A stretch of DNA of 64,000 nt, taken from NCBI GenBank assembly GCA_037074705.1, contig CM073593.1:6577001-6641000 (forward strand), written 5' to 3'. Shown piece by piece: positions 20,216 to 63,151 of the stretch. A program made the translations under genes and the position numbers. The notes below the pieces were generated by a model, which was given only the letters and a program-made list of their open reading frames with translations, did not search any database and was not told where the DNA came from. How positions within the stretch are numbered: the first letter of the stretch is position 1; every line of letters starts with the position of its first letter. Source of the stretch: Zhengitettix transpicula. Its lineage: Eukaryota; Arthropoda; Insecta; Orthoptera; Tetrigidae.

Positions 20216-20423
20216 AGCGAGTCCGTGTGTCGCGCCGCCTCCTCGGAGATGCGGCGGGTTTCCACGCGTGGGGGCGTCGTGGAGGTGGAGGCGGTGCTCT
20301 CGTGCCGCTCCGTGGCCCGCCCCCGCAGCTGTTCGCGCCTGCCGCACTCGCTGCTCGTGAACCCGGGGACGCCCTTCGAAACCAGCCTCGACATCGGCAC
20401 GTGCGTGGGACACTGCCACGGAG
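20216..20423 (+). CDS. pnhd: Pinhead-like secreted cysteine-rich protein, internal exon (first coding exon found)
   Basis: This exon gives 69 codons plus one base (phase 1 donor, GAG|GTAAGT at 20424). I chose the acceptor TTTTCAG at 20215. The frame stays open upstream to 20147, and a weaker acceptor at 20166 would add about 16 residues including one Cys. Five cysteines are visible (residues 5, 30, 39, 63, 67 of the visible protein). It ends with DIGTCVGHC, which starts the first of two similar cystine-knot-like halves. The exon is much more GC-rich than its surroundings. No signal peptide is encoded here, so at least one upstream exon is missing, either in the first 20 kb or outside the window. 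Pinhead is known as a secreted cysteine-rich modulator of early patterning. The name rests on cysteine pattern plus linkage to the Admp-like gene downstream; another cystine-knot family is possible. Confidence 0.62.
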
Positions 20424-20781
20424 GTAAGTCAGTCAAAGTAAAAACTTATACATAAAACACTAACTTTTAAAGTCAGAAAAATACATCGATTCGTCGCTGT
20501 TTAAGGCCTCTTAAGATATATGAAGTTTTAAAAAAACCATCATAATCCAATAATTAAAAATAAAGTAGATTTTGTTGATAACATAATAATATCAGCGACT
20601 TACTCCCTCGACTGCTGAGGACGAAATGCACAACTTAAACGTGAGCGACTCTGTTACATTGTTGAGTATTATGTTTGTTTTGTAGTGTAAAACTTCATAT
20701 ACCTGAAAAGGTCGTAAATAGCGACGAAACGTTGTATTTTTTCAAATATAAATCTTTTCCTGACTGTTTCATTTATAATAA

Positions 20782-22825
20782 TTTGCTGGGTGCCTGCAGT
20801 TGCGCGGGTATTTATTTATATAATACCGAAAAATGAATTAGTGTATATATGCAGACGTATTTATAATTTCATCATCACAACCCCCCCCCCAGTGCCTTTG
20901 GAGAAGCATAAATACTCCCGATACCAAATATTATCAAAATTACTCTTCAAAAAATATACTTGGTAATCTAATATAGTCACAAATACACGCTCTACCTTAA
21001 TAGAGTTAATTATACTCCCAAAGCAAATTTTCTTAATGCAACTCAAGAATGTAAAAATTACATCCGGAACTATTGAAGGTAAAAAAAATATATTTTCCAT
21101 ACATTAAGAACATGTAAAAATGACAAAATTACTTTCGGTTCCTTAAGCGAGTTAAAAACACTTCCTGAATGCCAAGAGAATCAAAAATACTCATTTAAGA
21201 AAGACAAAAATAGTTCCTTTACATTAAGACAGTCAGAAAGTCTCTGTATCCTAATACAATAAAAAATGCTCCCGGGACCTTAAGGGAGTCAGAGACACTC
21301 CCAGTATCTTAAGAGAGTAAAAATACTACCCATACCTTAACAGTCACAAAAATACTCACGCTACTCTAAAAATATGAAGAATACTCCCTATAATATAGAA
21401 TGTCTTCAAAATGCCAGCTCTTATACCCCGAACCGCTATATATGATAGGAGTATTTTACCGATACAGTGTTTGTTTCGTAAGTATTATCTGTACAAATTA
21501 TGACTTTACGTTTTTAAGATTGTACGCGGAAAACCGTTTTCCTCTTCCACTCCCAAACCTAGGGGCATAACTATTACTTAACCGGCATTTCAATTATGAT
21601 TATTAAACTCAGAAACATCCATAACCCCAGCTTCGACTCCAATCTCTATTGTTTTATGTAACGACCCTGCTCCACCAAGCCTAAATCTGCTAACCTTCCA
21701 TGACTAAAGGGGTTGCAATTATACAAAAAAAATATCTGAAGGAACGCCATCTTTCTGATAGATCGGAATCAGTTAACTCCGCCTAGTATATCCGCCGTTT
21801 TAACATGTTGGAAAATATCCACCACCGTCCTCTTCTGGAGGTTAAACTTCAAGTTGAATGTGACAATTTAACTCAGAAACATTCATAACCCCGGATATTA
21901 CACCGATCTTTTCCCGTTACTTTCTTGTAACGCCCCTCCACTCAAAACCACTAAGGGTGCTCCCTTCTTATACCAAACGTGGTTATCATATACACAAGTA
22001 ACATCGGTAGAAATATTATTAATCTCGACCCCGAAATTTATTTATTCGTCGCAAATATAGGCCGTTTAAAAAATTTGAAAATTTTCACTCACGTCCACTC
22101 CCGCCCCTGTGTTAATTGTGTCTTATCCTCGCTTGGTTGGTATCCGGTTGTAAAGGAACGCATGTACAGATTACCTCCACGGTCTATATTTGTATGCGGA
22201 AGATACACACATTGTTTTCCCTTCACCCGCTGTAAAACTCGATCGGCAAGTTGAACGTCATAAACATACTCAGAAACGTCCAAAACCTCGGTTTAGATTC
22301 CAATCTCGGTTATTTTGCTTTATTCTTATGTAACGCCCCACCACAAACAACATTCGAATATAGAATCAATCTCATTCACCCTGAAATATATTTATTGCAC
22401 TCAAATACCGTCCGTTTAACATGTTTCCCAGCCCGCACCGGGGGTTTAAACGGAAAGTTGAATGTCATAATTAAACTCAGTGACATCAATAACCCAGGAT
22501 TCGACTCAACTCTCAAATGTTTTTGCCCTAAAGGTGCTCCCTTCCCATGCCATAAGTGGTTGAAATTATACACAAATAGCATCTGTAGAAGCACTATCAA
22601 TCTGTTTGACCCGGACGCAAAAATCTGCCGCAACTATCGGCCATTTTAGCACGTTTAAAAATTTCCACCCCCGTCCCTGGGGCTGGTAGACATGTCTCAC
22701 CCCCACAGTGATGTTTCCTGGTCGCAAAGAACACATGTATGAAATTTGGTAAAATTTGCTCCACGGGTGTAGATTTGTATGTGGAACATACATACATACA
22801 GGCAATTTTATTTATTAGATTTATA
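20782..22825 (+). repeat. ~290 bp tandem repeat block with long short-repeat head (block 4)
   Basis: It starts TTGCTGGGTGCCTGCAGTTG. From 20895 to 21420 there are many diverged ~30 bp units (AAAATACTCCCGATACC / CTTAAGAGAGT). From 21550 the ~290 bp units follow, and the block ends at the CATACATACATAC tail near 22800. It lies in the first visible pinhead intron. Confidence 0.75.
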
Positions 22826-23824
22826 TTTAATAGCAGCCTCAAACATACATTTTTAACATATTTTAACAAATTAATAATTTAAAAAACAGAAACTGGACAA
22901 CAAATAATTATTAACCCGCTAAAATCGCTCCAATGAAAAATAGAATAAATCAGATAGTTTAATTTAAATTAAGTACAAGTATTCTTTTTCCCTCTACAAT
23001 TTATACGATGACGGTTTGGACATGACAACAAAACGAAAACTATTAGAGGCAGCATATTTCTTTGTTTAGTGTAGTTACGAGATTATAGAGGAAGGGAAAC
23101 ATGATGTAACTGTTTTTAATACCATGTAGTTCCTCATTGAGCAATTGCACTTACAAAAGAGAGGGATCGGGTTTACGTATTGAATATAGCAAGGACTTCG
23201 TAATAATTTGTCTGTTATCACATTTACTCATATTTCCGGAAAATTTTGTAGCACATACACAGGTTTGATTTTTGGGAAATTTATAATTCCAAACCATAGA
23301 GTGTCAACATTAAATTAGTATAGATATGAAAACAACCTGTTTGTGAAACATAAGGTTTCAAACGTAATTGAATGTGTATATAAAGTATTTATTTACATAC
23401 GTTTTATTGACAGCCACATACTTTAACAATATAATACCAAATTTTTGAAGTCAAAAATAGTCAAATTAAATCATATTAAATATGAAAAGCGATTTATTGT
23501 AAACGATTGGAATTGTCAAGAGATTAATATCGTATTGACTCCTTTTCCGGAATAGTGCACCTAAACACCTGGGCAATATAAATAAAATAGACAGTCATCT
23601 TACTGCACGCTTTTTTTCCTGAGAAACATTCACCTTTGGGGCGATTAATAAGAAAGAGGCAAATTTTGAAGCGAAAAATTTGGAGACACCAGTGTAATTA
23701 TAGGATTTGTTTGAGTGATAGGGCTATGAAAAATGATTTGATATTGCTGAAATTCTATTCCAGGAATTTGTATTTCTTTTTCAACACAGAAAAGAGCGTT
23801 TTTGATTTTGAATTGCCGTTCCAG
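22826..23824. other. Pinhead intron, AT-rich, nothing identified
   Basis: Unique-looking AT-rich sequence up to the acceptor at 23824. Confidence 0.5.
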
Positions 23825-23994
23825 GGGAAGGTTGCCGACCTCTGCGCAACAGGACCGTGGCAGTGGCGGGTCCCAATGGTTCCCAGTGCTACGTCGTCGT
23901 AGAGGAGTGTCACTGTGCGCCTTCGTGCTACAGAGCTGTGCTCACAGAGACTGTCTACGACTACAGGGCCAACAGCTCCTCTCCCACCATCAGG
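23825..23994 (+). CDS. pnhd: Pinhead-like protein, middle exon
   Basis: The acceptor is TTCCAG at 23824 and the donor is AGG|GTAAGC at 23995. Entry is phase 1 and exit phase 0, matching both neighbours; with the split Gly it encodes 57 residues. Five cysteines include CYVVVEECHC and a following APSC. A C-x6-C-x-C ending like this is typical of the last strand of a cystine knot, so this exon seems to close the first half begun in the previous exon. There are three potential N-glycosylation sequons (NRT, NGS, NSS), consistent with secretion. The neighbouring introns, 20424-23824 and 23995-26521, are repeat-filled and AT-rich while this exon is GC-rich with GC-ending codons. The reading is well supported as coding; the family name is an inference. 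Confidence 0.65.
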
Positions 23995-24427
23995 GTAAGC
24001 AAACATCATGCCATAGACAACCAGTCTTACCCATAATTGACTCTAAGCGAAAAACATATTCATGTTAATAAGTACACACGTAACAGGCCTAATGTTAGAA
24101 ATTAAATAAATTGTTAATTGAATACTAGGTGTGTTCAACTATTAACGGGAATTTTGTAATTTCGCGGGTCGTGTTAGTACGATTCGAGCAGTTTTTTGTT
24201 GTATTTGGTAACTACGTCTTAGACGTAACTGAACATTGTTAGTCATATAGGATGTTTAACCTGTTGTCATCGGTTAACAAGGTTACAGATGTTTTGTAGC
24301 CATAGGCGATTATTTAATTGTTTAAAATGTGGTGGGCTTATTCTAAATTTAGGTTCAAAGGTAAATTTTAGTAATAATACAAGGTTTGTTGGGCGCCAGC
24401 TGCAAAAATTATTCTCTCGCAGGAAAG

Positions 24428-25048
24428 AAATAATTTTTTTTTTAGGGCAACAGGCTACATGAGGGTAAAAACAATTTGCAAAAAGGAAGTCGACTGCTGC
24501 GAGGGCTATTCTCGCAGGCAGTACCTGCAAGGAATATTCTCTCGCAGGCAGAACCTTTTAGAGGAGATACGAAGGGGCTACCTTTGGGGATGCCTTTTCC
24601 TCTCCGTTTTTGAACTAAGGTTCCCACAAGCAGAGGCACCTCGGCCTGTTTTGAGAGGTGTATGTTCCGGGGTCACAGACCTTGGGCATACGGTAAGAGA
24701 TGTTCGCTATTCCCATTGGAATAGTCGGCCAGCTGCCTCCTAAACTGGTCGAGATACGGAGAAGGGAATGCTGGGTTCCCACAGCAAACTCCTCTCCCGC
24801 TATCGGAAGGGCGTGGGACAAGTACCCAATGCCCGACCTACCTGATGCAGGTTTTTCTAGGGTTTTCCCTGCATTATTTTTAGGCGAATGCCGGGTAGGA
24901 TCCTTAAACTATAGCCCGGGGACCCTAGTTAACCCTTGGCTACCTTCCTCTACTCTTCCGCATCCCCCCTTTCAGATCTCTTCCTATGCTATTAAAGGGG
25001 AGTTGCCACCATGTGGATTACCCTCATGTAGCCTGTTACCCTAAAAAA
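24428..25048 (+). repeat. A-tailed repeat family copy with an inverted end fragment in front
   Basis: The body from about 24470 to 25048 matches the copy at 11530, including the antisense open frame at 24821-24615. In front, 24428-24462 is the tail end in inverse orientation (TTTTTTTTAGGGCAACAGGC). It lies in the last intron of the pinhead-like gene. Confidence 0.75.
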
Positions 25049-25739
25049 ATATATATTTTAACAGAATTTATATATTCGCCCACTCATTCTTAACAACAGA
25101 AGCTCTCCAGCCTTGCCAGGGATGCATGTACCCCCCCCCCCTTTCTCAGGATTAACCGTGGTTAATGTTTGTGGCAAATCGGTGCGATACCTGGATGCAT
25201 GGAATGCGACTTACCAGGTCTGCAGCTCGGACAGGGCCGACTCCCGTTGGCGAGTTTCTCTGCAGCAGCAGCAGACGACCGGGACTCCACGTGTACACCA
25301 AAATTGTCCAGGACCAACTCTCCCTGAAGGTCCAGATCTATCTTTCCCGTGTTCGCCGACTGATCTCGTCGCTCTCCGTCCTCAAAAATCCCTATCTCCT
25401 GGTTGGTCCTTGACTACACGTGACCCACTTCAATCTATTTTAGGGCCATACCTTCCTGGTCGTCTACACCTTGGTCGACCATGGCCTTGATTGCGGGACC
25501 TGCGGATTTTCCAAATCCGCCCCGCCATTGTCTTCTGTCTGCTGCTCGACCCCGGCAAGCCATGTTTTCATGTTTCCAGACAGAAATTTAGACAAATGTT
25601 ATAAAAATACTTGACAAATACAAATTGAAAACGGGAAGGCGCACCATAAAAATATGGATCAGAGAATTTGCATTAAATTTTGCTATAAGAATGGAATAAA
25701 CTGTAGCAATGTTTTATAAATGTTAAATATTGCTTTTGG
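25049..25739. other. Pinhead intron; unidentified GC-rich stretch 25100-25560
   Basis: Contains a C11 run at about 25131 and a plus-strand frame of 125 codons (25113-25490) with no domain, Pro- and Ser-rich. Probably a transposon remnant. Confidence 0.35.
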
Positions 25740-26458
25740 TGAGTTGCTATTTGCAAAACAAGGGTTTACGAGTGGTATCAGCTTTTCCAAGGAAGGCCGT
25801 GAAGACGATTTAATATGACGAGTCCCTCAACGTCCTCAGCACATCAACAATCGATTATGGGAAACGTGGAATCAGAAACAGAAAATTCGCTGATGATGTT
25901 GAAATATCTATTGGCTCATGCCTTGAAATGTATTCATTTGTTTATGAAGGTATGACAGGAAAATTAGTTCCAAAACTGTTGAATTTCGAAGAAAAACGTC
26001 TTCAACGTTGCAAACGTGTCACAACAGGTGACGAAACGTGGGTTTACGGATGTGACGTCGAAACTAAGAAATCGTCCCAGTGGAGGCATTCTGGATCGCC
26101 AAGTGCGGTCGAATGTGTTATGCTCACGATTTGGTGCATGATGATGTCAAACGGTGAATGAAACGATCCGGAAAAATCGACCTGATTTGTGGCTAAACAA
26201 TTCATGTACTGTAATGATGATCCAGACATGGCATCCTTTTGACCATTTTCTATCTCCAAACCTTAAAGGGGCTTAGTTTTACAAGCGTAGATGAGATTAA
26301 AAGCGCATTGCTGTAAGCGCTAAACGATATTCCAAATATCGAGTTCCATAAGAATTTTGAGAATTGGAATAATTTGAAGTGAGTAACATTACTGTAAACA
26401 AATTAATAAAATTCATTCCAAAAAAGGTAAATTTCCGTTAGTTTTTGACCACACCTCG
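25740..26458 (+). mobile_element. Decayed mariner transposase with right inverted end
   Basis: Protein fragments LVPKLLNFEEKRLQRC and TTGDETWVYGCDVETK (25960-26075) match a mariner transposase around the first catalytic Asp. Later pieces (FDHFLSPNLKG, FHKNFENWNN) follow in other frames. The right end GTTTTTGACCACACCTCGTA lies at 26441-26460; no left end was found. The second catalytic region is lost. It ends 63 bp before the last pinhead exon. Confidence 0.75.
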
Positions 26459-26521
26459 TATGCCATCTGCCGATGAGATCCGTAAAGCTGACTGATTGAT
26501 TGAATTGTGTCTTGTGTACAG

Positions 26522-26731
26522 GAGGTGGACATCGGGCGCTGCGTGGGCACGTGCGTGGGCGGTGCTCCGTACCTGTGCGTGATGAAGGACGCCAAGACGG
26601 GCAAGTGCCTGGCGGGCTTGTGGGGGAAGACGCCGAGCTGCGTCGCCTCACGCCTGCACACGCACACGTACGTGGACGGCGACGGCGAGGCGCAGCAGCT
26701 CATCGAGGCCGTCGACTGCTCCTGCGGATAA
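26522..26731 (+). CDS. pnhd: Pinhead-like protein, last exon with stop
   Basis: The acceptor is TGTGTACAG at 26521, phase 0; the exon gives 69 residues and a TAA. It opens with EVDIGRCVGTCVGG, a near copy of the DIGTCVGHCHGG at the end of the first exon, and closes with VDCSCG, again a C-x-C knot ending. It carries seven cysteines (residues 133, 137, 145, 155, 166, 192, 194 of the visible 195-residue product). The protein therefore has two tandem cystine-knot-like halves. The exon lies 63 bp after the right end of a mariner remnant. The following GC-rich sequence quickly becomes AT-rich after the stop. Drosophila bursicon and glycoprotein hormone subunits do not have this doubled layout. Confident as coding, moderately confident as pinhead. 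Confidence 0.66.
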   Translation, partial: EVDIGRCVGTCVGGAPYLCVMKDAKTGKCLAGLWGKTPSCVASRLHTHTYVDGDGEAQQLIEAVDCSCG

Positions 26732-27496
26732 CACGCTCTTGCACACTCACGCTGCTGTCCAAAACTTAAACGTGTAACAACGAATACCAACAATTCTAAC
26801 ATCCATTCATGAATAAGGACTAGTTACGTAAGCTTCGAGACGCGTATGAGCGAAATGTGACAAGGTTTTTAGTCAAACCTAACGCAATGTATGGCATCTT
26901 CCTAACGTATTACAAATATTATTTAATGAGATCACGTTTGGAGATCCTGATGCTTATTAAGAAATTGAATAGCACGTAGGATAGCAAAATTCTTGACCAT
27001 GAAGACGAAGCCTAGGCTTACGAAAAATCGCAAATTGTCAAATGTTACGTTTCTGAGCTTTTTTGTCAGTTTTCGAGTAAGCATGAACCGTGCGTGAACG
27101 TAAGATTAGTCCTATCCATGGGCAAAATGTCGTTCAACCTATTTCCGCGTTCTGTCTTGCATTCTCGTTGTTCCTACAAACTTTGAATACAACTGCGTCG
27201 TCTAGGTATCGATTCCGTCATCTAGTCTTTATTGAAGTCGTGTATGATGTGGCGCCACGTTACAGACAGATTCATCACATTCAAATTTCCACAACATAAA
27301 GTCGGTTCCATCAATTTTTACTTGTCTCAAAACTGAATTAGGCGTATCGTGTATTTCGTTGATCAACTACGCTTAGCTTTTGGACACTGGTGTAGGAATT
27401 ACATGCAGATAGTATTTATTTATTAGCACCTTATTACATAGTATTTAGTTACGGAGAAATATACCAATAATGTTCCGACAATTCGAAATTATAGAG

Positions 27497-27502
27497 AATA
27501 AA
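27497..27502 (+). promoter_or_regulatory. Possible AATAAA polyadenylation signal for the pinhead-like gene
   Basis: An AATAAA hexamer about 765 bp after the pinhead-like stop codon. More AATAAA motifs occur near 27720 and 27845, so the choice is uncertain. Confidence 0.2.
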
Positions 27503-28196
27503 ATATGGCGACCGGTATACAAATTTAAAAAAAATTATTGTTTGAGTAACACGTAAATTTTCGCACAGATAATCAGTAATTTACGTTTATTAATGCCAGA
27601 GTTTTGAATGAAAAGTATTATAAACCGTAGTATTAAATCGCATATTTATTATTGAAATACTTCTGATGCTATTAGAGGCTTGTAAAGGATAGTATTTAAA
27701 GTAATTCTTAATCTAATTGTAAATAAATACACATGTTATTTTTTCGTAATTTATAAAGGTTAATCGCATTACTTCCGGTTCTGTATGCTTTCAAACATGC
27801 TAATTAACAATAATTTGGTTTATACGAACTTGTAAATGGTGTGTCTTTAAATAAAAATTACAGAATCATATCCTATATGTTTTATTTAGTTTACAAGTAT
27901 CCATTCCCTTTGATCTGTCTCGTAGAATGCTGTAGTCAGTTCCCTTCAGAGAAGTGCCATTATCACTTCTCGACTGGCTTCAAGATAACCACGTTGTATC
28001 ACACACCGAAAGAGCAAGTAATGAATATTGCATAATGCAAAAGGAAGACTTTGCGGATAGTCTCGTATTGTGAAACAGACGTTCTGCCCAAGCGTAAAAC
28101 GTATTATAGATTCCATTCTGGATTCAAAGGGAATTTTGACAAAATGTCATTAATCATTTTCAAAGCCTGCCATTTTCCAGTTACGTGAGTATATAA

Positions 28197-28500
28197 CCTG
28201 AATGTCCGGCGTTGCCCTGGTATTTATTTAAATTATCCCAGAGAACGAATTGATTCGACACTAACCTCATCACACACATTTACGTTTCCCTCCCGGACCC
28301 AAGTCGTCCTCCCGTTATCTTAAGGGAATCAAAAATACTCCCGCTGCATTAAGGGAGTCCATAATATTCCCGTTTTCATTTTAAGTACTCACAAACACCC
28401 CTGGTATTTTAAGAGAGTCAAAAATAATTGCGATACTTTAAGAAAGTAAAAAAAAAATCCAAAAATACTCCTCGTATCTGAAAGGAGTAAAAATGATATA
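28197..28500 (+). repeat. Head fragment of the ~290 bp repeat family (block 5)
   Basis: It starts TGTCCGGCGTTGCCC and carries short units of the AAAATACTCCC / TTAAGGGAGTC type; the longer units are absent. Located 1.5 kb after the pinhead-like stop. Confidence 0.6.
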
Positions 28501-29492
28501 ACCTTTAACTAAACAGATATTATGTACGCGGAAATTTTCTTCAACGCTTTCAACCCGCTTCACCCGGTAGCTTTTGTCAACCACGTCGTCGACCATCAGA
28601 AATCCTTAACAGCCATTAAATTATTATATCTTTATTTTCCTGTTATTTGCCTTTATTATTAATATAATTTGCCTCCAAATATCAATAATACTATTATTTT
28701 TGCACTCCCATTTTATCTAATGAATTATTACGAAGCTCGGTATAGTATTGAGAAACATTTAGAAAGTATTGAGGTCATAAATTGTGAAATATGAGCCAGT
28801 TTTTGTGTATAAATGATATTTTTACTGATAAGTGGTGATGAAAATATCAGAGAAGCCACAGCGCTTAACATATTATTGTGGGAAACAAACAATTACAAAA
28901 TGCGATCAGTTCGAGTACCTTGATTTTATTTATTTATTTAATTTGACCTCGAATAAAGAAATAGGATACGTGATTACTAAAAATTATAATATCATTATTA
29001 GGAGCACCAAATAATTACAATTAGAAATTAACATGTACCTTTGACGTTACTATGGTGAAATATAATATCCACATTATGCAAACAAATTAAATACGCACTA
29101 GGTAAAAAATAATTATTTACAGAATTAACTATCACAAATCATAAAATATGGAATTACACATCACAGGTGAATAAACAAAAAAGCAAGAGGAGGAAGCTCA
29201 AACAGAAACGCCGATCACTTCACGAAACTAAACAACGAGGAAACTGACATTTCGTAGAAACTCCAGGTCGTACACAAACAAATAAAGAAAAGATGACCCA
29301 GAGAGTAAGCAGTTTCAAGGGTAACACACCCAACACTTTTGAAGTATAAAGAAAACCAAATTAATTATTAGTGCAACGATCCAGAAATTCCTGAAGTGAG
29401 AAACACACCGGCGCCTTTCAGTAAAAGAAATTTCAGAATTGTTGTAGTCATATCTCTGGAGGAAGTCATTGTATTATCTCTGGTAGATGATC

Positions 29493-30564
29493 TTAGACCT
29501 GAGACTCGCCATTCGTTTGAAACAGATTCATGTTCCGCTTTACGAACTTTAAAATTTCGTGAATAAACATGCTGAGTAGAGTTAATATTCGCAAACTTTT
29601 CATAAACGGTTTACAACTATATTTACTATCCGTATTAGAAACTATTCTAATGGCAGACTTTTGCAACTGGAATATTTCAACGCTCCTGGACCAATTGACC
29701 CAATTCACGATGCCTTATCAGACAAGGAAATGAAAATACGCAAAGTACCCATTTTAATTGTGTTGATGTCAACATGTTGCCCAGCAAGCAAATGCATATG
29801 CTGAGTCCAATGAAATTTGTTATCAATGTGAATACCCAGAAAAGAACTAGTCTCGAACACTTCCTGTTACTACCATCCGCTGAGAACTGGACCAATTTAT
29901 TTACTTTGTTCACTTTGTTTACGTTTCTAACAAGTTTATAAATTTTTTTATCTGAAATCACTACGTTTGTGTCATCCGAATAGAGAATGGATTTAAGAGG
30001 ATGTACGAATCCTGGAAGATTATTAATATAAAATTTGAAAATTAAAAAGGACCAAGATTGAACCTTGAGGAAAACCGCTATTAATTAATTCCCAATCATC
30101 TTTAGTTTCGACCGCTACCATTTCCTTTCGGAGAAGAAAGGAGTTTCCCCGATAATAAAATTCTAACTTTCGTAGTAAAATTTCATGATAAACCGTGTCA
30201 TATACCTTAGACAGATCAGCAAATATTCCAGCTACCTTCAAACTCTCATACAATCAACTTGGAATATTTGGAATAAAGTCGTACATTGAACTATTTGTTT
30301 ATTTTCCTTTAAGGAAACCAAGCTGTGTGCAACTGAAAATATTATATTTGCTCAAGACATTAAGTAATTTAATATGAAGTATTTTGTCGTAAATATTGGA
30401 AAAAAATACGAAGGAGAGAAAAGGGGCTCATAATTTGATACGTTGTTCAATAAGAGGATTACTTTCGCGCTTTTCAGAGCAACGGGAACTATTCCAGTTG
30501 CAAGGCATTTGATAAATATGAGGTGTAGTGGAAATGCGACGACATCGCCACTCTCTCTAAGCAT
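29493..30564 (-). mobile_element. Jockey-like LINE, decayed reverse transcriptase
   Basis: Minus-strand pieces in order: ALKSAKVILLLNN and NYEPLFSPSYFFPIF near 30470-30390, then VAGIFADLSKVYDTVYHEIL and INSGFPQGSIL near 30230-30050, then VISDKKIYK and the C-terminal SVEIFQLQKSAIRI and FMKSLRILTLLSMFIHEILK at 29680-29540. These are the RT fingers, the palm (A(F)DTV, PQGS) and the C-terminal region of jockey/CR1-type LINEs. The YADD box is not in a clear frame. Several frameshifts; no EN domain. Confidence 0.78.
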
Positions 30565-30884
30565 TTTGTTTGCTTATCTGCTACTTCGGAACACTTCAAG
30601 TTTCTTATCACTGTAATTATTTCATCTATACATACAGATTGAATAAATATACTATTTGGAGTTCTGCAAGAATTATAATAAATCTTCTTCCGTATACGCT
30701 GAATTTTTTTTACATGAAGGTTAGCAACATTTACGAAATACGAGCGGTATGGCGAATGCTGGCTGCTGACTCACGAATCGCAAAGGCCAAGAAAAGAGCC
30801 GTAATGAAAAGAAAAGCAAATAGAATTGAGGGAGAACAGGGCTTTGTATGATCAAAGATTGAAGTCTTTCCCGGTGTAGATGTT

Positions 30885-31036
30885 CAATAAATAGTTCTCG
30901 GTATTCACACGGGTTTTGCATATTTATATTTACACGCAACGTTTCGACTACTAAAAGCTCTGTCATCATCTAGAAGAAACGTTGCGTGTAAATATAAAGA
31001 TGCAAAACCCGTGTTAATACCGAGAACTATTTATTG
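30885..31036. repeat. Near-perfect hairpin, 61 bp arms, 30 bp loop
   Basis: The arms 30885-30945 and 30976-31036 are complementary at 59 of 61 positions. The arm contains GAAACGTTGCGTGTAAATAT, a motif also found at 40738, where it follows GACAGAGCTTTTAGTCGTC. The loop holds the complement of that same stretch. Most likely two inverted ends of a Penelope-like element. Confidence 0.85.
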
Positions 31037-31639
31037 AAGGTTTTGTATTGGATCAGAAACATAGATATTATGAAACAGAGACAAAAAACCCTGAAATGTT
31101 TTGATTTGTTGAGTTGGAAAGGAATTGAAAAAAATAAACAGTACAGATATGGTAAAACGAAGGGATTCTTAAATGGGTAAATGAGAAAAGATCAATATTG
31201 ACTACCAGTTTTACTATAAAGGAAATTAAATCAGGCACATATTAAGGAGAAATTGTTTACTGCACATCATCGAATGACATGTGGATTAAAATTCCAGGTC
31301 GTCGATGAAAAAGAATGTAGTTGGACGGCTTAAAGGGAGAAGAAAGAATCTAAGGGCAGGGCAAGGCGGAGAAGGATATTTATAGAACAGTTCCAAGGAA
31401 CCTACCAGTAGTGAGAACTATAATAATGATGGGAGCTATGGTCTGCCCTTGCGTCACATTAGCCCCTTTCCTACAATCGTTACGTCTTCAGTTTATTTTA
31501 ATATCTGGATATTTAATTATAAATGGTGTAACGCTTCATCACAGTAGACTGCGTCCATCACTCTGACAGTTAAACACAAATATTTTTTTGTTCTAACTTG
31601 CACTACTTTAAATCTTTTTATTATACAGACTTATTCACA

Positions 31640-31805
31640 GTCGCGTCAGAAGCTCAGGTTATTAGCGACTCATCATGCGAACTCATTTTGCCTTGTCGGG
31701 GGACTGATTTGGCGAGATTCCCTCGCACAAACATCCTGGCCAGGATTTCAACCCGGGAACTCTGTGACGCGAGACACTCTGACCCTAACACCACAGGAGA
31801 GGGCC
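31640..31805 (-). repeat. tRNA-derived SINE, minus orientation
   Basis: The reverse complement reads TCCTGTGGTGTTAGGGTCAG (A-box-like) and, some 30 bp later, GGGTTGAAATCCTGGCC (B-box-like). No cloverleaf can be folded, so this is a SINE and not a tRNA gene. Confidence 0.5.
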
Positions 31806-31886
31806 GAAGAATCTTGATGTATATGAATAAACATTTGATATTTGACCTCCTTCCAGTGATAAGTACCCAAAAAATTTTGAATACAT

Positions 31887-32937
31887 TGTAGTAATTGGTA
31901 ATTAAGGTATTGTTCTAATTGAGAAGTTGAATTGTAGAGGACTCATTATTGGTGGATATAGCGGAAGCCGCAACAAACCGGCAAGGCAAAGAAAGTATTG
32001 TTGATCGGTCGAGAAGGTTTTACGCGCTCAAAATTTACGAGACGAACGAATAGTCGGGTAGTAAGCAGCAAGGAGAACAGACCAAAATTCTAATTCATGA
32101 AAATTTGAACAAGACAGTCAGGCAATGAACGGCGAAGTGTAAAGACCACAAAATTCTAATACACGAAAAGTTGAACAATTTAGTCAGTCAGCAGCGAGAA
32201 TGAAAACGGTCTAATTTAAAGAACGAGAAAGTGTTCCAGTAACCAGTACGCTGTTATATCAAAAATGCAGAAATTGAACAGTCAACAGACAAAACCAATT
32301 AGGGGCATTTTCAACAAAAATCCACGAGACCTACGAATCCAGTTTGCAGTAAATCATCGAGAATCGACAAATTTATTTTAAACCAACTAACAAACTACGC
32401 TAATTAGAGTCTGTGAACATTTAGAGTCTGTGGGTACTTAGAATCAGTGAGATCCCCAAAATTGTGCACGAAAAGTTAAAATGAGACCTGGGCTGCCGTA
32501 AGTAGAAAGAAAACTTTAAAATCATTGTAAACCACGTTTAAAAGACAAACGTCAGATCGTTCTTTAATTATCGATAAAATGAGATCTTTAATTATTCAGA
32601 TCATTCTTTATTTCTTGATAAAAATTAAAATGGTTTAAATTCAATCTTTAGTATTATTTCTTCAGCAACAAATTTCGTCTATATTCAGACGCATTAATTC
32701 CCATATAAAGTAAATGTAATTTTTGTGATTTTGATTATATAAATTCTGCCATTATCAAAGCCAGTTCAAGACCCTGAAATCCCAAATATTTTGTAATTTG
32801 AATACTTGTTTTAAAATTGTTAATAAATCTTGTTTAATAGTTTTCACATAATAGTTCTTTTCATTTAAAAACGCCACATAATTCATATCCAGAATTATTG
32901 TCAAAGGATGTTAAGCTATTTGTAATAATTTATTACA
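31887..32937 (-). mobile_element. Solo LTR, copy B (1051 bp)
   Basis: The reverse complement matches copies A and C from TGTAATAAATTATTACAAAT to the CCAATTACTACA end. ACAT is repeated on both sides (31883-31886 and 32938-32941). It lies between the two host genes. Confidence 0.85.
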
Positions 32938-33904
32938 ACATATATAATTGTATTTAAATTCCCCCGAGGGAAAATTGAAGTTTACCCAGATCTGGGCGTA
33001 TCACGAAAACTTTTTCGGGTTGGTATTCCCATCGGTTCTCGGAACGCCAGGATCCTGGGCATCCCAGTGACGGTATGTTCGGTTTTGTAGTCCTAGGATA
33101 AAGGTGCGGGATTTCCCCTGTGAAACCTTTCATCATGGTCAGTTTTCAGTTGCTCGTGTTTTGATGCGGTTAAGTTATCCCAGGCGAAGGAGGTGTTGGG
33201 GCTGATATGCGTCCAGTAACAACACTCACAATAATAATCACCGATAGAGGCTTGAACGCAAATTATTTGCAGACTACATTGTTAACTGAATAGTATTGAG
33301 GGACACTCACTGGCTTACAAACAGATTGTGAATTGTTCTTCATACATCTTGGACAATGTTCGGCCCATTACAAAGAGATTCAAAACACCTGTATCTTAAT
33401 ACTAAGACACATTGCCGAAGTTCGTTACTTTATTTCGAACGGTTATCCCTAACATACCGAGTCTAACCTTCACGGGATACCTGTGAATCGTCAACAGTAG
33501 AAAACGATATTGAGTAAACATGAAGACTTGTATTGAGAACTTGCGGAAACCTAATTTTTTAATCATTCCCTCTGAGACTTGATCATTGTAACGGTTATAA
33601 TTCATGCTAGAGAACTACATTGACCAGGACAGTAAATTATTTTTTGTTTCAGAAATAAATGACGCGCGGGTGTAATCTACCACGCGACATGATTTAAGAA
33701 GCAACAAGTCAACTTTCTATGTCCAAGTTTAGCATGTCCGGTATTTTTAGCCTCATCAGAAGATGCAAAATACTTTCTAAAAGCGAGATTTAAGTATGAA
33801 ATATGCCTTGGACAATATATGAGAGTAGACGTTTCACATGAATATATGCTCAGAAAAATCAATCCGTGAGCGGGAAAGAAAACTTTGATGTTATACTCAC
33901 CTCA

Positions 33905-34035
33905 TCTATTTTGTAGACTAAATGCCGGGTATGAGCCTTGAAGTAAGCCCGCGGGCTCCTAGTTAACCCATGGCTCTCTTCCGCATAGCCCACTTCTATA
34001 CATTGCTATTCTATTAATGCGGGGGCGTGAACCTC
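33905..34035 (+). repeat. A-tailed repeat family, short decayed fragment
   Basis: ATGCCGGGTATGAGCCTTGA ... CCCGCGGGCTCCTAGTTAAC ... CTATTAATGCGGGG matches the later body of the family with several gaps. Confidence 0.5.
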
Positions 34036-35499
34036 AATTTCTTTTTATATTAGATTGTAAATTCCAATTTATTTTCGAGAGGGTTCAACGAAAGAAATAG
34101 TTGTATTAGCCGCTTATTATAAACCATCCTTCGAATTTTTGTATACGGCAGCGGCCAGTTTTTTAAAGAAATTCTGAGAAACAATTTGATGTTCAACAGC
34201 AAATAACGTGTTTCTAACTATCCTGCTTAAGCTTCCTTCGTACCAAACACAGTGAACGTCGACCAAAGTAGCGGAAATAAATTTTGCAAACTAGTTTGAG
34301 GTATCTCCATTCTCAGAATTTTAAATCAGGAAATAAGTTTTTATAAGAAATTCTTCCCATTTCTATCGACGTTAATTGGCGGGAAGTACAGAATTATGGA
34401 ACACAAGAGACGTACTCTTGTTCCTCAGATTTTAATTAAAATTGTATATATTTAAAGAACTAGCCAAAGCCTATGCAGCACTGCGAAATGAAAAAGAAAC
34501 AAGGATATATTTAAAACCCTTGCTAGAGAATAGTAGTTCCTGTTTAAGTTAGAATAACAAAACCACCAAGTCATAAAGAAAACGACGCTGAAACAATGTG
34601 ATGTTTCCTTAATTAAATAGTTTTATTGCATATATATATATATCTTCCCACCAGCATAATTACAGAAAGGAACGCATGCAGGAGTTTCGAATAAATACTG
34701 AATAAACCTTTCCTGGCGATTAGAAACTGCAGCTTATGCAGGAGCTCTGAAGCTGGTAAGGAGAGCAATGTCGGATAATGTATACATATCCGGGTCTTAG
34801 ATTATTCCTCAGGGTTAGTTAGGAAAAAAAGGCTGATTTAGCAGGTTATCAATTTTTTGTATATTAAATCCAGATGCACTTGTTGCGGCTGAGACGCTGG
34901 TTTAGGAAACGCTTCTTTACTAACCCAGTCTACTTCTAGTCATCAAATTTGCATTTAATTTATTTGACACCTTATTTTAAAATATTTAACATATATATAT
35001 ATCGATAATTTACTGAACTGGAATCCAACATCCTGGCGGTTCGTAGCAACGCTTCCTTTTTTTTTTCATACGTTACTTGTAAAACCTTGTGAATGCAAAC
35101 ATTCTTTATTTTACTAAACTCCTAGTGCGTTTACATTATTAAAATAAATTATATACCTAGTTATTAATTAAATTATATTAGGAATACAGTACGTGAATTT
35201 TGATTAGCTTTTCACCCGACACGGTCTATTGCATTAAATCATAGATTCTTTCTGGTTTATAATTGTATTTCAGTTTTTATAGTTAAATTTAAATACCATT
35301 GTTATAGATATTTTGTATAATTCTTCTTGTAATATTGTCTAGAAATTCTATATATCAAATATTTTAAACTAAGATGTCAGATATGTACTAGGTAAGTAAT
35401 GAGGCCTCTTCCTGATCCTGTGGACAAGGCAAACTCCAGATACCTGGGTCTACATCCGCAATTACTAATTGATAATACTCATTTGAAATGTGAAGAATT

Positions 35500-35503
<4 letters not shown>

Positions 35504-35536
<33 letters not shown>
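35504..35536. repeat. (AT)n microsatellite
   Basis: About 33 bp of AT alternation just before the SINE. Confidence 0.9.
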
Positions 35537-35543
<7 letters not shown>

Positions 35544-35544
35544 T

Positions 35545-35735
35545 ATTTTGACTCACTACTTCGCATCACAGATGTCCCGGGTTCGAATCCTGGCATGCGC
35601 GTGGATCGTCTTAGTTATGAAAACTGGGGTAAAGGCTGCCACTCCTAACTCCCAGAATATGTCACGGAAGATAGCAGTTTGGCAGTCGTCCTAGTTGGTC
35701 AAGGCCGTCCAATGGGCTATAACTGATAATAATAA
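35545..35735 (+). repeat. tRNA-derived SINE, plus orientation
   Basis: CCCGGGTTCGAATCCTGGCA at 35577 is a good Pol III B box. The following body ends in TAATAATAATAA-like simple sequence near 35735. The A box is poor, so the head is truncated or decayed. Confidence 0.5.
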
Positions 35736-36392
35736 CAGTAATGAATAGTTTTTTTAAAAAAAATATGAGGCTGTACAGCGAAATATTGAACTTCTCTACG
35801 CGGTTACCCCGAAATGGAAAACAGAATCTAAAATCGTGTCTTTCCAAGTACAATACAGCGTAATAATTGGTATTGATGGTTGACAGTTCCATTTAAATGT
35901 TTCCGCTCCTGATAAACTATTTAAATGCGGAGTTGCAGATGTTGATCTACTCGTCTTCTTCCTGGAGTCATCATCAATAATTCTTTTGACCGAATTCAGT
36001 TCAATACGAAGCAGTCTTCGAAGTTAAACGAGAAATAATTGTTAATTTGTAATCATTTTAATTTTACTATCCAGACTGCGGAATAAGTTAATTTCGAATT
36101 GACGGTGGCCTTAATGGAGGGCGGTGCTATGAATTTAAATTGCGTATAATAAAAAAAAACCTGTAAGATATTAATATTGAAGATAATCGTTTAGTTTGTG
36201 GGGGCAAGCGCCCCTGTACCGAGAACAATCCATCGCTTGAGTTGGGCGAGTTCGCAAGAACTCTTCATCAAAGTGAAAGGAGAGAAATTGTATTTTTGCA
36301 GCGGCGGTGGTGGGGAGTTTCGCCTCATCCTTGGCCAGGGTTTTTCCCCACTCCAGATATATTTCTGCGCGTGCTGCGCGTGTCGTGCAGTG

Positions 36393-36491
36393 ATGGCGTG
36401 CGCATTGTTGTGCCTCGTGCTGGTTTCTCTGGCCGTCGTCTCGTCGGCGCAGGCCGCGGGCCGTCGCGACGCCCTGCGCCAGCTCCAGCAG
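36393..36491 (+). CDS. Admp: ADMP-like BMP ligand, exon 1 (signal peptide)
   Basis: The ATG at 36393 has a good context (G at -3 and G at +4) and begins a 33-codon exon ending CAG|GTAACA, phase 0. It encodes a classic signal peptide: a short N-terminus, a hydrophobic core of Leu/Val/Ala over residues 4-16, and a likely cut after A-Q-A at residue 21, followed by a basic stretch (GRRDALRQLQQ) that starts the prodomain. The frame is open upstream to a GTG at 36198, but that extension has no domain sense and I treat it as 5' UTR. Intron 1 is 8.9 kb. The exon ends in LQQ, which joins in frame to VFGW of exon 2, as in BMP prodomains. Confidence 0.8.
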
Positions 36492-45383: not shown

Positions 45384-45546
45384 GTGTTCGGATGGCCCAG
45401 CCTGCCCAGTCCGTGGACGCACCCGCCGTCGCCGTCAGCGCCGCAGTACATGACGCAGCTGTACCGCTCCATCACAGACGCCGACGGCGTCGTCAGGGGC
45501 AAGAATCCCTACAACGCGCGCGTCGTCCGCAGTTTCGTCGAGAGAG
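45384..45546 (+). CDS. Admp: ADMP-like BMP ligand, exon 2 (prodomain N-terminal part)
   Basis: The acceptor is GTGCGCAG at 45383, phase 0; the donor is GAGAG|GTAACT after one base of a split Asp codon. Residues 34-87 read as the BMP prodomain latency helix region: a VFG-W start, then APQYMTQLY at 52-60, SITDADGVVRG at 62-72 and NPYNARVVRSF at 74-84. The 'PPQYM-LY ... DADG ... NPYNA-VVR-F' layout is shared by ADMP and BMP2/4-type prodomains. The exon is strongly GC-rich. It follows a P-like transposase remnant ending at 45076. The product is secreted as a proprotein; this part would shield the mature dimer and aid folding. Confidence 0.85.
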
Positions 45547-49951: not shown

Positions 49952-51136
49952 CGAGGGTGGTCTGAAAATTTTCCGGCCTCAACGTGAAGATGGCAGCACT
50001 AGTAAATAAAAGCTAGTGATTTTCGTTGTTCATCTATTGACAGTTACTCACCAAACTTTCAGCCATTTTGGATGCGCAGTTGTTATGTAACAGTCGTTTG
50101 AGTGAGTTGATGTGAGTGTTTTGTGAAAATGGAGAAAATTGAGTATCGAGCTGTTATTAAATATTTTTTTTAAAGGCAATACGCCTACACAAATCAAAGA
50201 TGAGTTGGATTCTGTGTATGGGGACGCTGCACCATCATTTACCACAGTGAAAGTTTGGGCAGATGAATTTAAACGTGGCCGTAAGAGCTTGGGAGATGAT
50301 GTACGTTGGGGACGTCCAAAAACTGCAACTACCGACGAAAACATCGCCAAAGTTCACCAAATGGTGCTACACGACCGCCGAATTAAAGTGAAAGAGTTAG
50401 AAGAGGACATGAACATGTCAAAAGAACGTGTTGGTCACATATTAAATCAACATTTAGGCATGAGAAAGCTGTCTGCGCGTTGGATGCCGCGTTTGCTCAC
50501 GTTAGATCAAAAACGTGTTCGAATGAACATTTCCAACGCTCTGTTGGCGAAGTTTAGGCGCAATAAATCCGAGTTTTGGAACCGATTAATTACTGTAGAT
50601 GAAACTTGGATACATCATTATACGCCCGAAACAAAAATACAGCCCAAACAGTGGACTGCAAAGAACTGTTTTTCAGCTGTTTTTTTGGGATAGTCATGGA
50701 GTTATTTTAATCAATTATCTTCAAAAGGGAAAATCATTACAGGAGCATCATTACTTGACAAGCTCAAGGCAGAACTTGCGGTAAAACGGCCAGATTTGCA
50801 GAAAAAGAAAATCCTGTTTCACACCTCAGCGATTGCCATGGTGAAAATCCACGAATTACGGTTTGAGCTGCTTGACCATCCCGATCTAGCCCCAAGCGAC
50901 TTCTTCTTGTTCCCTCATCTAAAAATTGCGCTCGGAGGACAGAGATTTTCGTCAAATGAAGAGGCAATCACCTTCGTAAACAATTATTTTGCAGAGAAAA
51001 ACGCCGAGTACTTTTTAGACGGGTTACAGACATGGGAGCATCGCTGGGAGAAGTGTGGAGAGGTACAAGGAGACTATGTTGAAAAATAAAAAATAAAGAT
51101 TCAAAAAAAATATCTTCTATCATTGTTGCGTCGGAA
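49952..51136 (+). mobile_element. Mariner transposon, right end lost, dead transposase (copy 2)
   Basis: The left inverted end CGAGGGTGGTCTGAAAATTT at 49952 follows a TA. The right side stops at GTCGGAA (51136), lacking the inverted end that copy 1 keeps. The frame at 50139-50693 keeps the DNA-binding domain and the first catalytic Asp (TVDETWIHHYTPETK). A deletion then removes the second catalytic motif: KKILFHTSAIAM replaces the HQDNAPSHTSA context. PDLAPSDFFLF (third Asp) is kept but PPYS is lost. Closely related to copy 1; each carries different defects. It lies in Admp intron 2. Confidence 0.9.
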
Positions 51137-51423: not shown

Positions 51424-51569
51424 ATAGTTCCCGGGGTGATTACTTCGTCTTCAATATGACTGGTCTGGAGGAAGGGGAGCGAGTCCTGGAAGCAGAGCTG
51501 CACCTCTACAGGATGAAGCTGCCTCTTCAGGACCTCACACAAGAGGCGCTCACGTCACCACATCTGTTG
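51424..51569 (+). CDS. Admp: ADMP-like BMP ligand, exon 3 (prodomain middle)
   Basis: The acceptor is TTGGTCCAG at 51423; the first two bases complete Asp88. The donor is TTG|GTGAGT, phase 0. It encodes residues 88-136: YFVFNMTG at 94-101 followed by ERVLEAELHLYRMKLP, the conserved 'F-v-s-i-p-e-E-v-l-A-E-L-r-l-y-r' strand-turn region of BMP prodomains. N98-M-T is a glycosylation sequon at the position where many BMP prodomains carry one. The exon lies 288 bp after a truncated mariner copy in intron 2. Phase at both ends agrees with exons 2 and 4, which strongly supports the model. Confidence 0.85.
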
Positions 51570-53110: not shown

Positions 53111-53130
53111 TGGGGTCTGTTGAATCGTTA

Positions 53131-54317: not shown

Positions 54318-54639
54318 GTGCGGGTGTACCAGGTGGAGGACGAGGACGCCCTATCAGAGGCCGACGCCCAGCGTCTGCTGAGCGTCCACTACGTGCGCCT
54401 GCATGCGGCGGGCTGGCTCGTGTTCAACGTGCGTCCCGCAGTGCTGGCGTGGGTGTCGGGGGCGGCGCCCAACAAAGGGCTCCTGGTGACGGCGACGACG
54501 CTGGCGGGCGACGCCGTTCCTCTGCGCTGGGCTCGGCGAGGCAAGCACCACGGGTCCCGACAGCCCATCCTCGTGCTCTTCAACGACGACGGCCGCGACA
54601 CTCACGCTCACACGGAGGACACGCCAAGAGCAGGACCAG
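54318..54639 (+). CDS. Admp: ADMP-like BMP ligand, exon 4 (prodomain C-terminal part)
   Basis: The acceptor is GCCTGCAG at 54317, phase 0; the donor is CCAG|GTGACG, phase 1. Residues 137-243 start VRVYQVED and carry WLVFNVRPAVLAWV at 169-182 (the conserved 'W-F-V-t-a-v-W' amphipathic stretch of prodomains), NKGLLVTATT at 188-197 and QPILVLFNDDGR at 218-229, the last prodomain strand. RWAR at 206-209 fits a minimal furin pattern but lies before that strand, so cutting there would leave prodomain on the ligand. GC content is very high compared with the flanking introns. The opposite strand shows open frames here that are shadows of this exon. Confidence 0.85.
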
Positions 54640-55585: not shown

Positions 55586-55589
55586 AGAT

Positions 55590-57168: not shown

Positions 57169-57171
<3 letters not shown>

Positions 57172-60960: not shown

Positions 60961-61398
60961 TGTTTAAACCGAAATGAATTAATAATAATTATTAATAATA
61001 ACTAATTTTTTATGTCTTACCAGAATACCTTCGAACTTGACGATGATGCTGATTTGGTAGGTACTTGCAATAGCGAACAGTACTTGGTCAGATTGGAAAT
61101 GCTCTAGGTCGTATCTTTCGGGCTTTAGTCACCAAATTTTATAATATGTGATAGGAGGAGACCCCCGTTTATTCTTATGATTTCACTTTAATCATTTTCT
61201 GAGAATCCATGGAAACCAAATTCGTAAATGCTGAGAAAAACTAGATCGGCGGTATTGAGTCGGTATAAAATTGAGCCTTATTTACAGCGAAATAATGCCT
61301 GACGAGATGTCATTGCAGATTGGAGATGGCTTTCAGCTGATAGGAAGACTATACACAAAGCAGGTCATGAAAATATTTTGATTAAACAGAAAGATATA
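60961..61398. other. Admp intron 4, nothing identified
   Basis: Non-coding sequence between two mariner remnants. Confidence 0.4.
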
Positions 61399-62667
61399 CC
61401 ACTGTGATCAAAAAGTAAGGCGAAATTGTCATTTAAAACGCCCGGGTATTAGGAAGGCAGGTAATTTTTTTCCAAGGTTGGTAGGACTGTCTATAATATT
61501 TGCCAAGCGTCTGTTTGTTAAAAGGTTTAATTATCTCCGAGTTACACGTGTTTTTGTAAATGGGTGATTTTGTTGAGCAAAAAACTTGCATCAAATTTTG
61601 TTTGCGGAACGAATATTCTTGTGCGGACACGTTGAAAATGTTGCGGAAGGCCTTCGGAGACCAAACTATGGCACAAAAAAACGTTTGTAAGTGGTACAAC
61701 GAGTTCAAAGAGGGCCGAGAACGCGTTGAAGACGAACCGCGCTATGGACGACCATCAACGTCTACCGACGAGGGCCACGTTCAAAAAATCAAAGATTTGG
61801 TTCTTGAAAATCGTCGATGGACCTCGCTGATAGTGTTGGAATATCATTTGGCTCAGCCCAACCATTTTGAAGAATGTTTTGTGTCTCAAACGTGTCAAGT
61901 CTCGATTGGTGCCAAAATCGCTCAATTTTTTGGAAAAAAAAGAGTCGCGTTGCTGTGTGTGAAACTTTGCTGTCTGACTATCAGGACCACTTGAAATACA
62001 TCATTACTGGAGACGAGACTTGGATTTACGCATACGAACCTGAAACCACCGACCAATCCAGCGAATATCATGCAAAAGGTGAAGCAAGACCGACAAGACC
62101 ACGGCAAAGTCGATCGAAAATCAAGGACATGTTGACAGTTTTCTTTGATTATCGTGGTGTGGTGCACTATGAATTACATCCGCCGGGCCAAACTGTCAAC
62201 AAAGAATATTATTTGAGCGTTATGCGTCGTTTGAGTGAAGCTATTCGTCTGAAACGGCCGGAATTATGGGCGAACAACTCTTGGTTCCTTCATCACGATA
62301 ATGCTCCATGTTATACTGCATTGCTTCTTTGCGACTTTTTTTGCCAAAAACTCGACTCATATCGTTCCGCAACCACCGTATTCGCCTGATTTGGCTCCGT
62401 GCGACTTCTGGCTATTCAGCAAACTCAAAAGACCAATGCGGGGACGCCGTTTTGAAACGATTGAGGAGATAAAAACCGAATCGAAGAAGGTCTTGAAGGC
62501 TATACCGGAAAAGACTATTCCGACTGTTTCGAGGACTGAAAAAAGCGTTGGAAAACGTGCGTTTTATCGGACGGGGATTACTTTGAAGGGGCTGAAATTG
62601 ATTTGGAAGAAGAAATAAAGAATTTATATTTTATAAATAAATTTACTTTCGTTTTTTTTCACAGAGG
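61399..62667 (+). mobile_element. Mariner transposon, both ends present, frameshifted (copy 3)
   Basis: 1269 bp between TA dinucleotides. The left end CCACTGTGATCAAAAAGTAA and the right end pair imperfectly (complement starts CCTCTGTGAAAAAAAACGAA). The transposase starts at 61560 (MGDFVEQKTCIKFCLRNEYS) and keeps ITGDETWIYAYEPETTDQ, HHDNAPC and PYSPDLAPCDFWLF, so all three catalytic Asp are present but split over three frames (breaks near 61850-61900 and 62330). It is a different mariner lineage from copies 1 and 2. Its right end lies 56 bp before Admp exon 5. Confidence 0.9.
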
Positions 62668-62723
62668 TATACGAACGGGATTTTTTATTCGTGAAATTTG
62701 ATATCATCGTTTATTTGATTCAG

Positions 62724-63151
62724 GGCATCAAGTCCACTACAGCTTGGATGACAACAGCGTCGACGAGGAGGAGCACAACGTGGAGCGACGCTCGGTGCTG
62801 CCGCCGACGCACGTGAACGCTTCCGAGTCGGACGAGGAATGCGAGCGCCAGCCGCTCTACGTAGACTTCGAAGAGATCGGCTGGAACTCGTGGATCATCG
62901 CTCCGACTGGCTACAAGGCGTACCATTGCGTCGGCCGCTGCGGTTTCCCCTTGGGTCTGAACCACAGGCCCACGAACCACGCCACGGTGCAGAGCCTCGT
63001 GCACAAGCTACGCTTGGCGCCCAAAGTGGAGCGGCCCAGCTGCGTGCCCGCCACGCTCGCGTCCCTCGGAGTCCTCTTCTTCGATGAAAATCTCAACGTT
63101 ATCCTCAAGAACTTCGAAAAGATGGTAGCTGAGAGCTGTGGCTGTCATTAG
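62724..63151 (+). CDS. Admp: ADMP-like BMP ligand, exon 5 (linker and whole mature domain)
   Basis: The acceptor is TTGATTCAG at 62723, phase 1; it ends at TAG 63149-63151. Residues 245-282 are an acidic linker with a dibasic ERR at 264-266 and a sequon NAS at 275-277. The mature domain runs from C283 to H385 and carries YVDFEEIGWNSWIIAP, YHCVGRCGFPLG and PTNHATVQSLVH, plus a GCH end. This combination reads as ADMP, a BMP-class ligand known to act in dorsoventral patterning through type I/II receptors and Chordin shuttling. Cysteines are C283, C312, C316, C350, C382 and C384; the residue before C350, normally the interchain Cys, is Ser349 (AGC at 63038). Admp is absent from Drosophila but known from some other insects. 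Total protein length of 385 is normal for a BMP. Confidence 0.88.

What the first reader, a model, noticed from the sequence alone, without database searches (positions are those of the whole stretch)
20216..63151. Pinhead-Admp tandem gene pair kept in an insect
A doubled cystine-knot-like secreted protein gene and an ADMP-like BMP gene lie consecutively on the same strand with no other host gene seen between them. In Ciona and several other bilaterians Pinhead and Admp are known neighbours, and in Ciona Pinhead transcription represses Admp in cis. Finding the pair here would mean this ancient arrangement, and perhaps the cis regulation, survives in insects, although the genes are spread over about 43 kb by transposons.
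Basis: partly seen in the sequence, partly recalled or inferred. Interest (0 to 1): 0.9.

Follow-up and report, generated by a model that had tools for sequence, protein, structure and literature searches.

The report
Pinhead and Admp neighbours in insect
Two embryo-patterning signal genes that sit side by side in other animals, Pinhead and Admp, appear to be neighbours in this insect as well; the arrangement is probably an ancient, already reported one, and the unusual detail is that this Admp lacks the cysteine that normally locks its dimer together.

Summary
Upstream is a Pinhead-like gene: 221 aa as modelled, two CXGXC...CXC cystine-knot-like repeats, no Pfam or PDB relative, one copy in the genome. 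Exons 2-4 lie at 20196-26731; a probable signal-peptide exon lies 30.5 kb upstream, outside the window. Downstream, same strand, is an intact five-exon BMP ligand, 385 aa (36393-63151; TGFb_propeptide 2e-25, TGF_beta 2e-31). The gap between the genes is 9.66 kb; 43 kb is the span of genes and introns. Seven other ligand genes found in the genome look like Dpp, Gbb, BMP9/10, a BMP3-like ligand, activin, myoglianin and maverick, so the window ligand is the extra BMP, best read as ADMP. No reference Pinhead or ADMP was reachable: both names rest on architecture, elimination and adjacency. ADMP in insects is published; the tandem pair in arthropods is recalled from Imai et al. 2012, not held. Cis-repression is untested. 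The least expected feature is Ser for the interchain Cys, which all seven other ligands keep. Verdict: a clean example of a known arrangement.

The parts
20196..20423 (+). Pinhead-like exon 2 (first repeat, CXGXC part). Exon 1 (signal peptide MRWQLHLLVATICALAEAS) is inferred outside the window at G000:C4:6566609-6566666
   Evidence: phase-1 junction; GC 0.69
23825..23994 (+). Pinhead-like exon 3 (CXC of the first repeat; start of the second)
26522..26731 (+). Pinhead-like exon 4 (second repeat, CXGXC...CXC, stop TAA)
26732..36392 (.). gap between the genes, 9,661 bp; no host gene recognised; holds a ~1.08 kb repeat at 31881-32959
36393..36491 (+). ADMP-like exon 1: signal peptide and start of prodomain (MACALLCLVLVSLAVVSSAQAAGRRDALRQLQQ)
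45384..45546 (+). ADMP-like exon 2: prodomain
51424..51569 (+). ADMP-like exon 3: prodomain
54318..54639 (+). ADMP-like exon 4: end of prodomain (TGFb_propeptide)
62724..63151 (+). ADMP-like exon 5: dibasic site (VERR) and mature TGF-beta domain; SC replaces CC at the interchain-cysteine position

Best explanation
The locus is the orthologous Pinhead-Admp pair of bilaterians, kept in order and orientation in an insect. Shown: two intact, adjacent, same-strand genes, one with two cystine-knot-like repeats, the other a BMP-class prepropeptide that is the extra BMP ligand among those found in the genome. Inferred: they are Pinhead and ADMP, and both are secreted. Inferred from other animals: the two proteins act in the extracellular BMP network, Pinhead limiting or sharing ADMP's work, and the two genes are expressed in mutually exclusive places, possibly because Pinhead transcription interferes with an Admp enhancer in the shared locus (untested here; I give about 0.35 that it acts in this insect). 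Also inferred: this ADMP lacks the interchain disulphide and so acts as a non-covalent dimer, a monomer or an exchangeable partner.
For: Gene models with consistent splice phases and high GC3. Propeptide and mature domain on the spliced ligand. Best PDB matches are BMP2/6 chimera, BMP6, BMP2, then BMP7, BMP3, GDF5, BMP10, GDF2 and the inhibin/activin chains (60 of 65 rows shown), so BMP class. Seven other ligand genes found in the genome have other likely identities. The two Pinhead repeats align better than shuffles: 3 of 2000, and without overlap 11 of 5000, or 13-15 of 5000 with cysteines held in place. Only the Pinhead-like gene's own three window exons match below E 0.07. No other family by Pfam. 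The loop before the SC is one residue longer than in the own dpp-, gbb-, BMP9/10- and L008 ligands (alignment), which I recall as an ADMP feature.
Against: No Pinhead or ADMP of another animal could be compared (scans found none). The mature domain lacks the seventh cysteine, and near it there is only a dibasic VERR; the two RXXR sites lie in the prodomain, at residues 79 and 206. The repeat test is modest and its split was chosen after seeing the sequence. The Pinhead signal exon rests on one model with a weak donor. The small tree joins the ligand to the BMP9/10-like gene. The genome-wide ligand list is a lower bound. No expression data.
Confidence: 0.85

Rival explanations
1. The ligand is a diverged duplicate of dpp (or gbb), not ADMP; the dpp-like gene lies 508 kb away on the same contig, so a local duplication is thinkable.
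For: dpp-like L001 is 508,156 bp downstream. Mature identity is 47.1% to own dpp over 102 columns, its best among the genome's own ligands.
Against: It is slightly closer to the BMP2/6 chimera (51.5% over 101 columns) than to own dpp, though slow evolution of BMP2/6 may explain that; its loop is longer than that of dpp; and it lies directly next to the Pinhead-like gene.
Confidence: 0.07
2. The upstream gene is a different insect cystine-knot protein that happens to lie next to ADMP.
For: No reference Pinhead was compared; no Pfam model names it.
Against: No Pfam family reported at all, the library holding several cystine-knot families (recalled); doubled repeat; single copy and directly upstream of the ADMP-like gene.
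Confidence: 0.06
3. The pair is conserved only as linkage; there is no cis repression in this insect.
For: The locus is stretched to 73.5 kb and carries repeats; no regulatory element was looked for or identified.
Against: The gap itself is under 10 kb, and order and orientation match Ciona (recalled).
Confidence: 0.5
4. The SC for CC change is an assembly error or a private allele, and the ligand is an ordinary disulphide-linked dimer.
For: One base separates AGC from TGC; reads were not available.
Against: The rest of the exon is open and matches the domain from end to end, and the six remaining cysteines suffice for a knot.
Confidence: 0.2

Closest known systems
Pinhead-Admp tandem pair of Ciona and other bilaterians (Imai et al. 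2012; title seen in a reference list; content recalled, paper not held)
   Same: Same two gene types, adjacent, same strand, Pinhead first
   Different: Locus stretched to 73.5 kb here; cis regulation unknown; ADMP without interchain cysteine
ADMP of insects and myriapods (PMC8051952: Nasonia, Gryllus; PMC3224130: beetles and/or wasps; PMC4244043: Strigamia; passages only)
   Same: BMP-class ligand beside dpp, gbb and, in some, BMP9/10; absent from Drosophila
   Different: Pinhead is not mentioned in the passages I saw; the cysteine state of those proteins was not compared
GDF9 and BMP15 (PMC6953019, passage)
   Same: Lack the cysteine of the intermolecular disulphide
   Different: Vertebrate oocyte factors (recalled); different branch of the family
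Zebrafish Pinhead (reviews PMC8753366, PMC8034876, passages)
   Same: Secreted partner of Admp in BMP patterning
   Different: There described as a BMP-like ligand in reciprocal repression with admp; similarity to the insect product not tested

Membership tests
ADMP | Signal peptide, TGF-beta propeptide and cystine-knot mature domain | tested here: met
   (PF00688 2e-25, PF00019 2e-31); signal peptide read by eye
ADMP | BMP class rather than activin or TGF-beta class | tested here: met
   ranking; identities
ADMP | Distinct from the BMP2/4-, 5-8-, 9/10- and BMP3-like genes found in the same genome | tested here: met
   the labels of the other loci are my reading of the sequences
ADMP | Groups with ADMP of other animals in a phylogeny | not testable with these tools
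   database off; scans found none
ADMP | Six knot cysteines | tested here: met
ADMP | Seventh, interchain cysteine (usual in the superfamily but absent in GDF9 and BMP15, so not strictly defining) | tested here: not met
   SC in the window ligand; CC in 7 of 7 other ligand genes read
ADMP | RXXR furin-type site just before the mature domain (usual, not strictly defining) | tested here: not met
   only dibasic VERR at 263-266; RXXR at 79 and 206 in the prodomain
Pinhead | Secreted, with signal peptide | tested here: inconclusive
   the exon is inferred from phase and position, with a weak donor and no RNA
Pinhead | Two cystine-knot-like repeats | tested here: met
   CXGXC and CXC twice; 3 of 2000 shuffles, 11 of 5000 without overlap. 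That this defines Pinhead is recalled
Pinhead | Sequence similarity to a known Pinhead | not testable with these tools
   searches gave no reference
Pinhead | Not a member of another named protein family | tested here: met
   no Pfam family reported; filters drop most weak matches
Pinhead-Admp cis-repression system | Pinhead directly upstream of Admp on the same strand | tested here: met
   given the family names
Pinhead-Admp cis-repression system | Pinhead transcription represses Admp in cis | not testable with these tools
   needs embryos

The most novel reading that the evidence does not exclude
In this insect lineage ADMP has shed its interchain disulphide and works as a non-covalent, exchangeable partner, as GDF9 and BMP15 do, able to form heterodimers with other BMPs after secretion, while staying under the cis control and protein-level antagonism of its neighbour Pinhead.
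Probability: 0.2. Interest if true: 0.55.

Novelty: new member of a known kind. Interest (0 to 1): 0.35.

Why it matters
An insect that keeps both genes side by side is a system in which to ask whether cis-repression between Pinhead and Admp is ancestral to bilaterians or a chordate detail. The missing interchain cysteine would be a natural test of what covalent dimerisation does for an organiser-type BMP.

Tried and rejected
Searches for Pinhead outside this genome gave nothing: Pfam, PDB (4 rows at E 0.094-1.4, one cytochrome c and three F-box chains, chance matches) and genome contigs. Scans for the ligand in viral contigs and genome contigs found none; these collections hold viruses, bacteria and archaea, so the blanks say little. 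Three scripts for a Pinhead signal exon gave no convincing candidate (one search printed nothing, two rows, ten rows); the exon was then found by reading on from a GC-rich stretch left of the window. Chordin was sought with CHRD (0 candidates); the domain may be split by introns, so I draw no conclusion. A motif of the ligand was sought in papers (0 papers). The four words admp, insect, interchain and cysteine together are in 0 papers of the library. Paper searches gave listings from which I read passages of a few. A fold of the spliced Pinhead was not asked for, since the tool takes letters read straight from the DNA; no structure prediction was run. I built no tree with ADMP sequences from memory, because my recall came after seeing the window. 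The first repeat test used halves overlapping by five residues and its script stopped with an error on a last, unneeded line after printing the result; one search repeats it without overlap (11 of 5000 for two split points; highest shuffle 73.0 against 59.0 observed), a weaker result than 3 of 2000.

Full report
What is there. The window is G000:C4:6577001-6641000 of a 993.6 Mb assembly. On the + strand two genes follow one another. The upstream one has exons at 20196-20423, 23825-23994 and 26522-26731, with GT-AG junctions that keep frame. Left of the window, just beyond a GC-rich stretch, an ATG opens MRWQLHLLVATICALAEAS and ends in a phase-1 donor that fits the phase-1 acceptor at 20196; I take it as exon 1, at G000:C4:6566609-6566666, with an intron of 30,529 bp. 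Its donor is weak (GTCACC), so this exon is likely, not shown. The product is 221 aa with 19 cysteines, 18 of them after the signal peptide, and has CXGXC and CXC twice (cysteines 89/93 and 124/126; 159/163 and 218/220). The two halves align with score 59.0, reached by 3 of 2000 shuffles (halves overlapping by five residues) and, without overlap, by 11 of 5000, or 13-15 of 5000 when the cysteines stay in place. This is modest support for an internal repeat. Pfam reports no family and PDB no credible match. In the genome its own three window exons match at E 1.1e-41, 4.9e-40 and 7.1e-32; the next of 7 rows is E 0.0779 with stops inside.

The ligand. Five exons (36393-36491, 45384-45546, 51424-51569, 54318-54639, 62724-63151) give 385 aa with signal peptide, prodomain and mature domain. 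The spliced protein matches TGFb_propeptide over residues 29-224 (2e-25) and TGF_beta over 282-384 (2e-31); exon 4 alone gave 1.9e-11 for the propeptide, which supports the joining. GC3 is 0.84 for the Pinhead-like exons of the window and 0.81 for the ligand. The nearest solved structures are a BMP2/6 chimera, BMP6 and BMP2, then BMP7, BMP3, GDF5, BMP10, GDF2 and the inhibin/activin chains (60 of 65 rows shown).

Which ligand it is. PF00019 gave 10 matches in the genome, a lower bound by the tool's own word. I read them as eight genes: the window gene, a dpp-like one (L001), a gbb-like one (L005), a BMP9/10-like one (L007, two matches), a BMP3-like or uncertain one (L008, to which I also count the unfetched match 10 kb upstream), an activin-like one (L003), a myoglianin-like one (L004) and a maverick-like one (L006) (the labels are my reading). 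Identity of the window domain is 47.1% to dpp, 45.9% to gbb (partial), 43.1% to BMP9/10, 40.7% to L008 (partial), 40.0% to L004, 36.4% to L006, 33.7% to L003 and 51.5% to the BMP2/6 chimera. A nine-sequence tree joined it to BMP9/10 with 0.867 support, but branches are long and no ADMP was in it, so I give it little weight. By elimination, and by its neighbour, it is best read as ADMP. ADMP is in print for beetles and/or wasps and not Drosophila (PMC3224130, passages), for Nasonia and Gryllus (PMC8051952, passages) and for a centipede (PMC4244043, passage); none was found in Oncopeltus (PMC4423117, passage).

The animal. The best match to a recalled fruit-fly Ubx stretch (99% over 88 residues) carries QAQAQK plus a poly-alanine run, the hexapod QA motif (recalled), so 'insect' in the broad sense holds. 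The order was not determined.

Distance. The gap holds a ~1.08 kb repeat at 31881-32959: of 12,398 first-look candidates for the 9.35 kb query 40 were scored, one being the window itself and 39 copies of this repeat at 92-96% identity. Introns hold mariner-type transposase pieces (Transposase_1 at 4001-4759 and 61871-62389; a piece at 50127-51089 by likeness). I recognised no host gene between the two, but not all ORFs were searched: of the 54 listed I gave ten stretches of the window to Pfam (four, eight besides the two spliced products, with no stretch given twice except parts of the ligand), and the ORFs at 44188-45076, inside ADMP intron 1, remain unnamed.

The cysteine. The mature domain reads VERPSCVP where the other ligands have CC; 7 of 7 other ligand genes read keep CC. 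Six cysteines remain, enough for the knot. A review states that BMP15 and GDF9 lack this cysteine and can form heterodimers outside the cell (PMC6953019, passage). Whether other insect ADMPs share the change could not be checked, nor could an assembly error be excluded. Just before the mature domain there is a dibasic VERR and no RXXR; RXXR occurs at residues 79 and 206 in the prodomain.

How it probably works. In zebrafish Pinhead and Admp repress one another's expression and both promote Chordin degradation (reviews PMC8753366 and PMC8034876, passages). Another review lists Pinhead as an ADMP regulator and cites Imai et al. 2012 on cis-acting transcriptional repression (PMC11226491, passages and reference list). 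That in Ciona Pinhead antagonises Admp, that its transcription disturbs the Admp enhancer, and that the genes are in tandem from arthropods to vertebrates, I recall from the abstract of that paper, which is not held. Of the 17 papers in the library with both words I saw passages of four; none of those passages describes the tandem arrangement. Shown here: the anatomy. Inferred: the family names, the protein roles, the cis effect.

Verdict. A clean, well-preserved example of what is most likely a known arrangement; interest moderate, raised a little by the missing cysteine and by the short gap, which makes the cis-repression idea testable in an insect.

Noticed in passing
G000:C4:7148307-7148612 (L001): The dpp-like gene lies 508,156 bp downstream of the ADMP-like gene on the same contig. 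The chance that one of seven other ligand genes falls within that distance is about 0.7% under random placement, judged after the fact.
   Followed up: partly
whole genome: No CHRD (Chordin/Sog) match in the genome (0 candidates). The domain may be split over exons, so absence is not shown; a loss of Sog is reported for Gryllidae (PMC8051952, passage).
   Followed up: partly
G000:C2:69904038-73352016: 10 of the 12 matches to a Ubx homeobox query lie in one 3.4 Mb stretch, all on the + strand, consistent with an unbroken Hox cluster.
   Followed up: no
window 31881-32959: A ~1.08 kb repeat in the gap between the genes, with 39 further copies scored at 92-96% identity.
   Followed up: partly
window 44188-45076: Two overlapping + strand ORFs (174 and 138 aa) inside ADMP intron 1 without a Pfam match; copy number did not complete.
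   Followed up: partly
window 4001-4759, 50127-51089, 61560-62618: Mariner-type transposase pieces in the introns of both genes (Transposase_1 for the first and third; the second by likeness to the first).
   Followed up: partly
L008 (G000:C3:34414105-34414278): A further BMP-class ligand, possibly BMP3-like; the Gryllus paper (PMC8051952, passage) calls Gryllus the only insect then studied with a BMP3.
   Followed up: no
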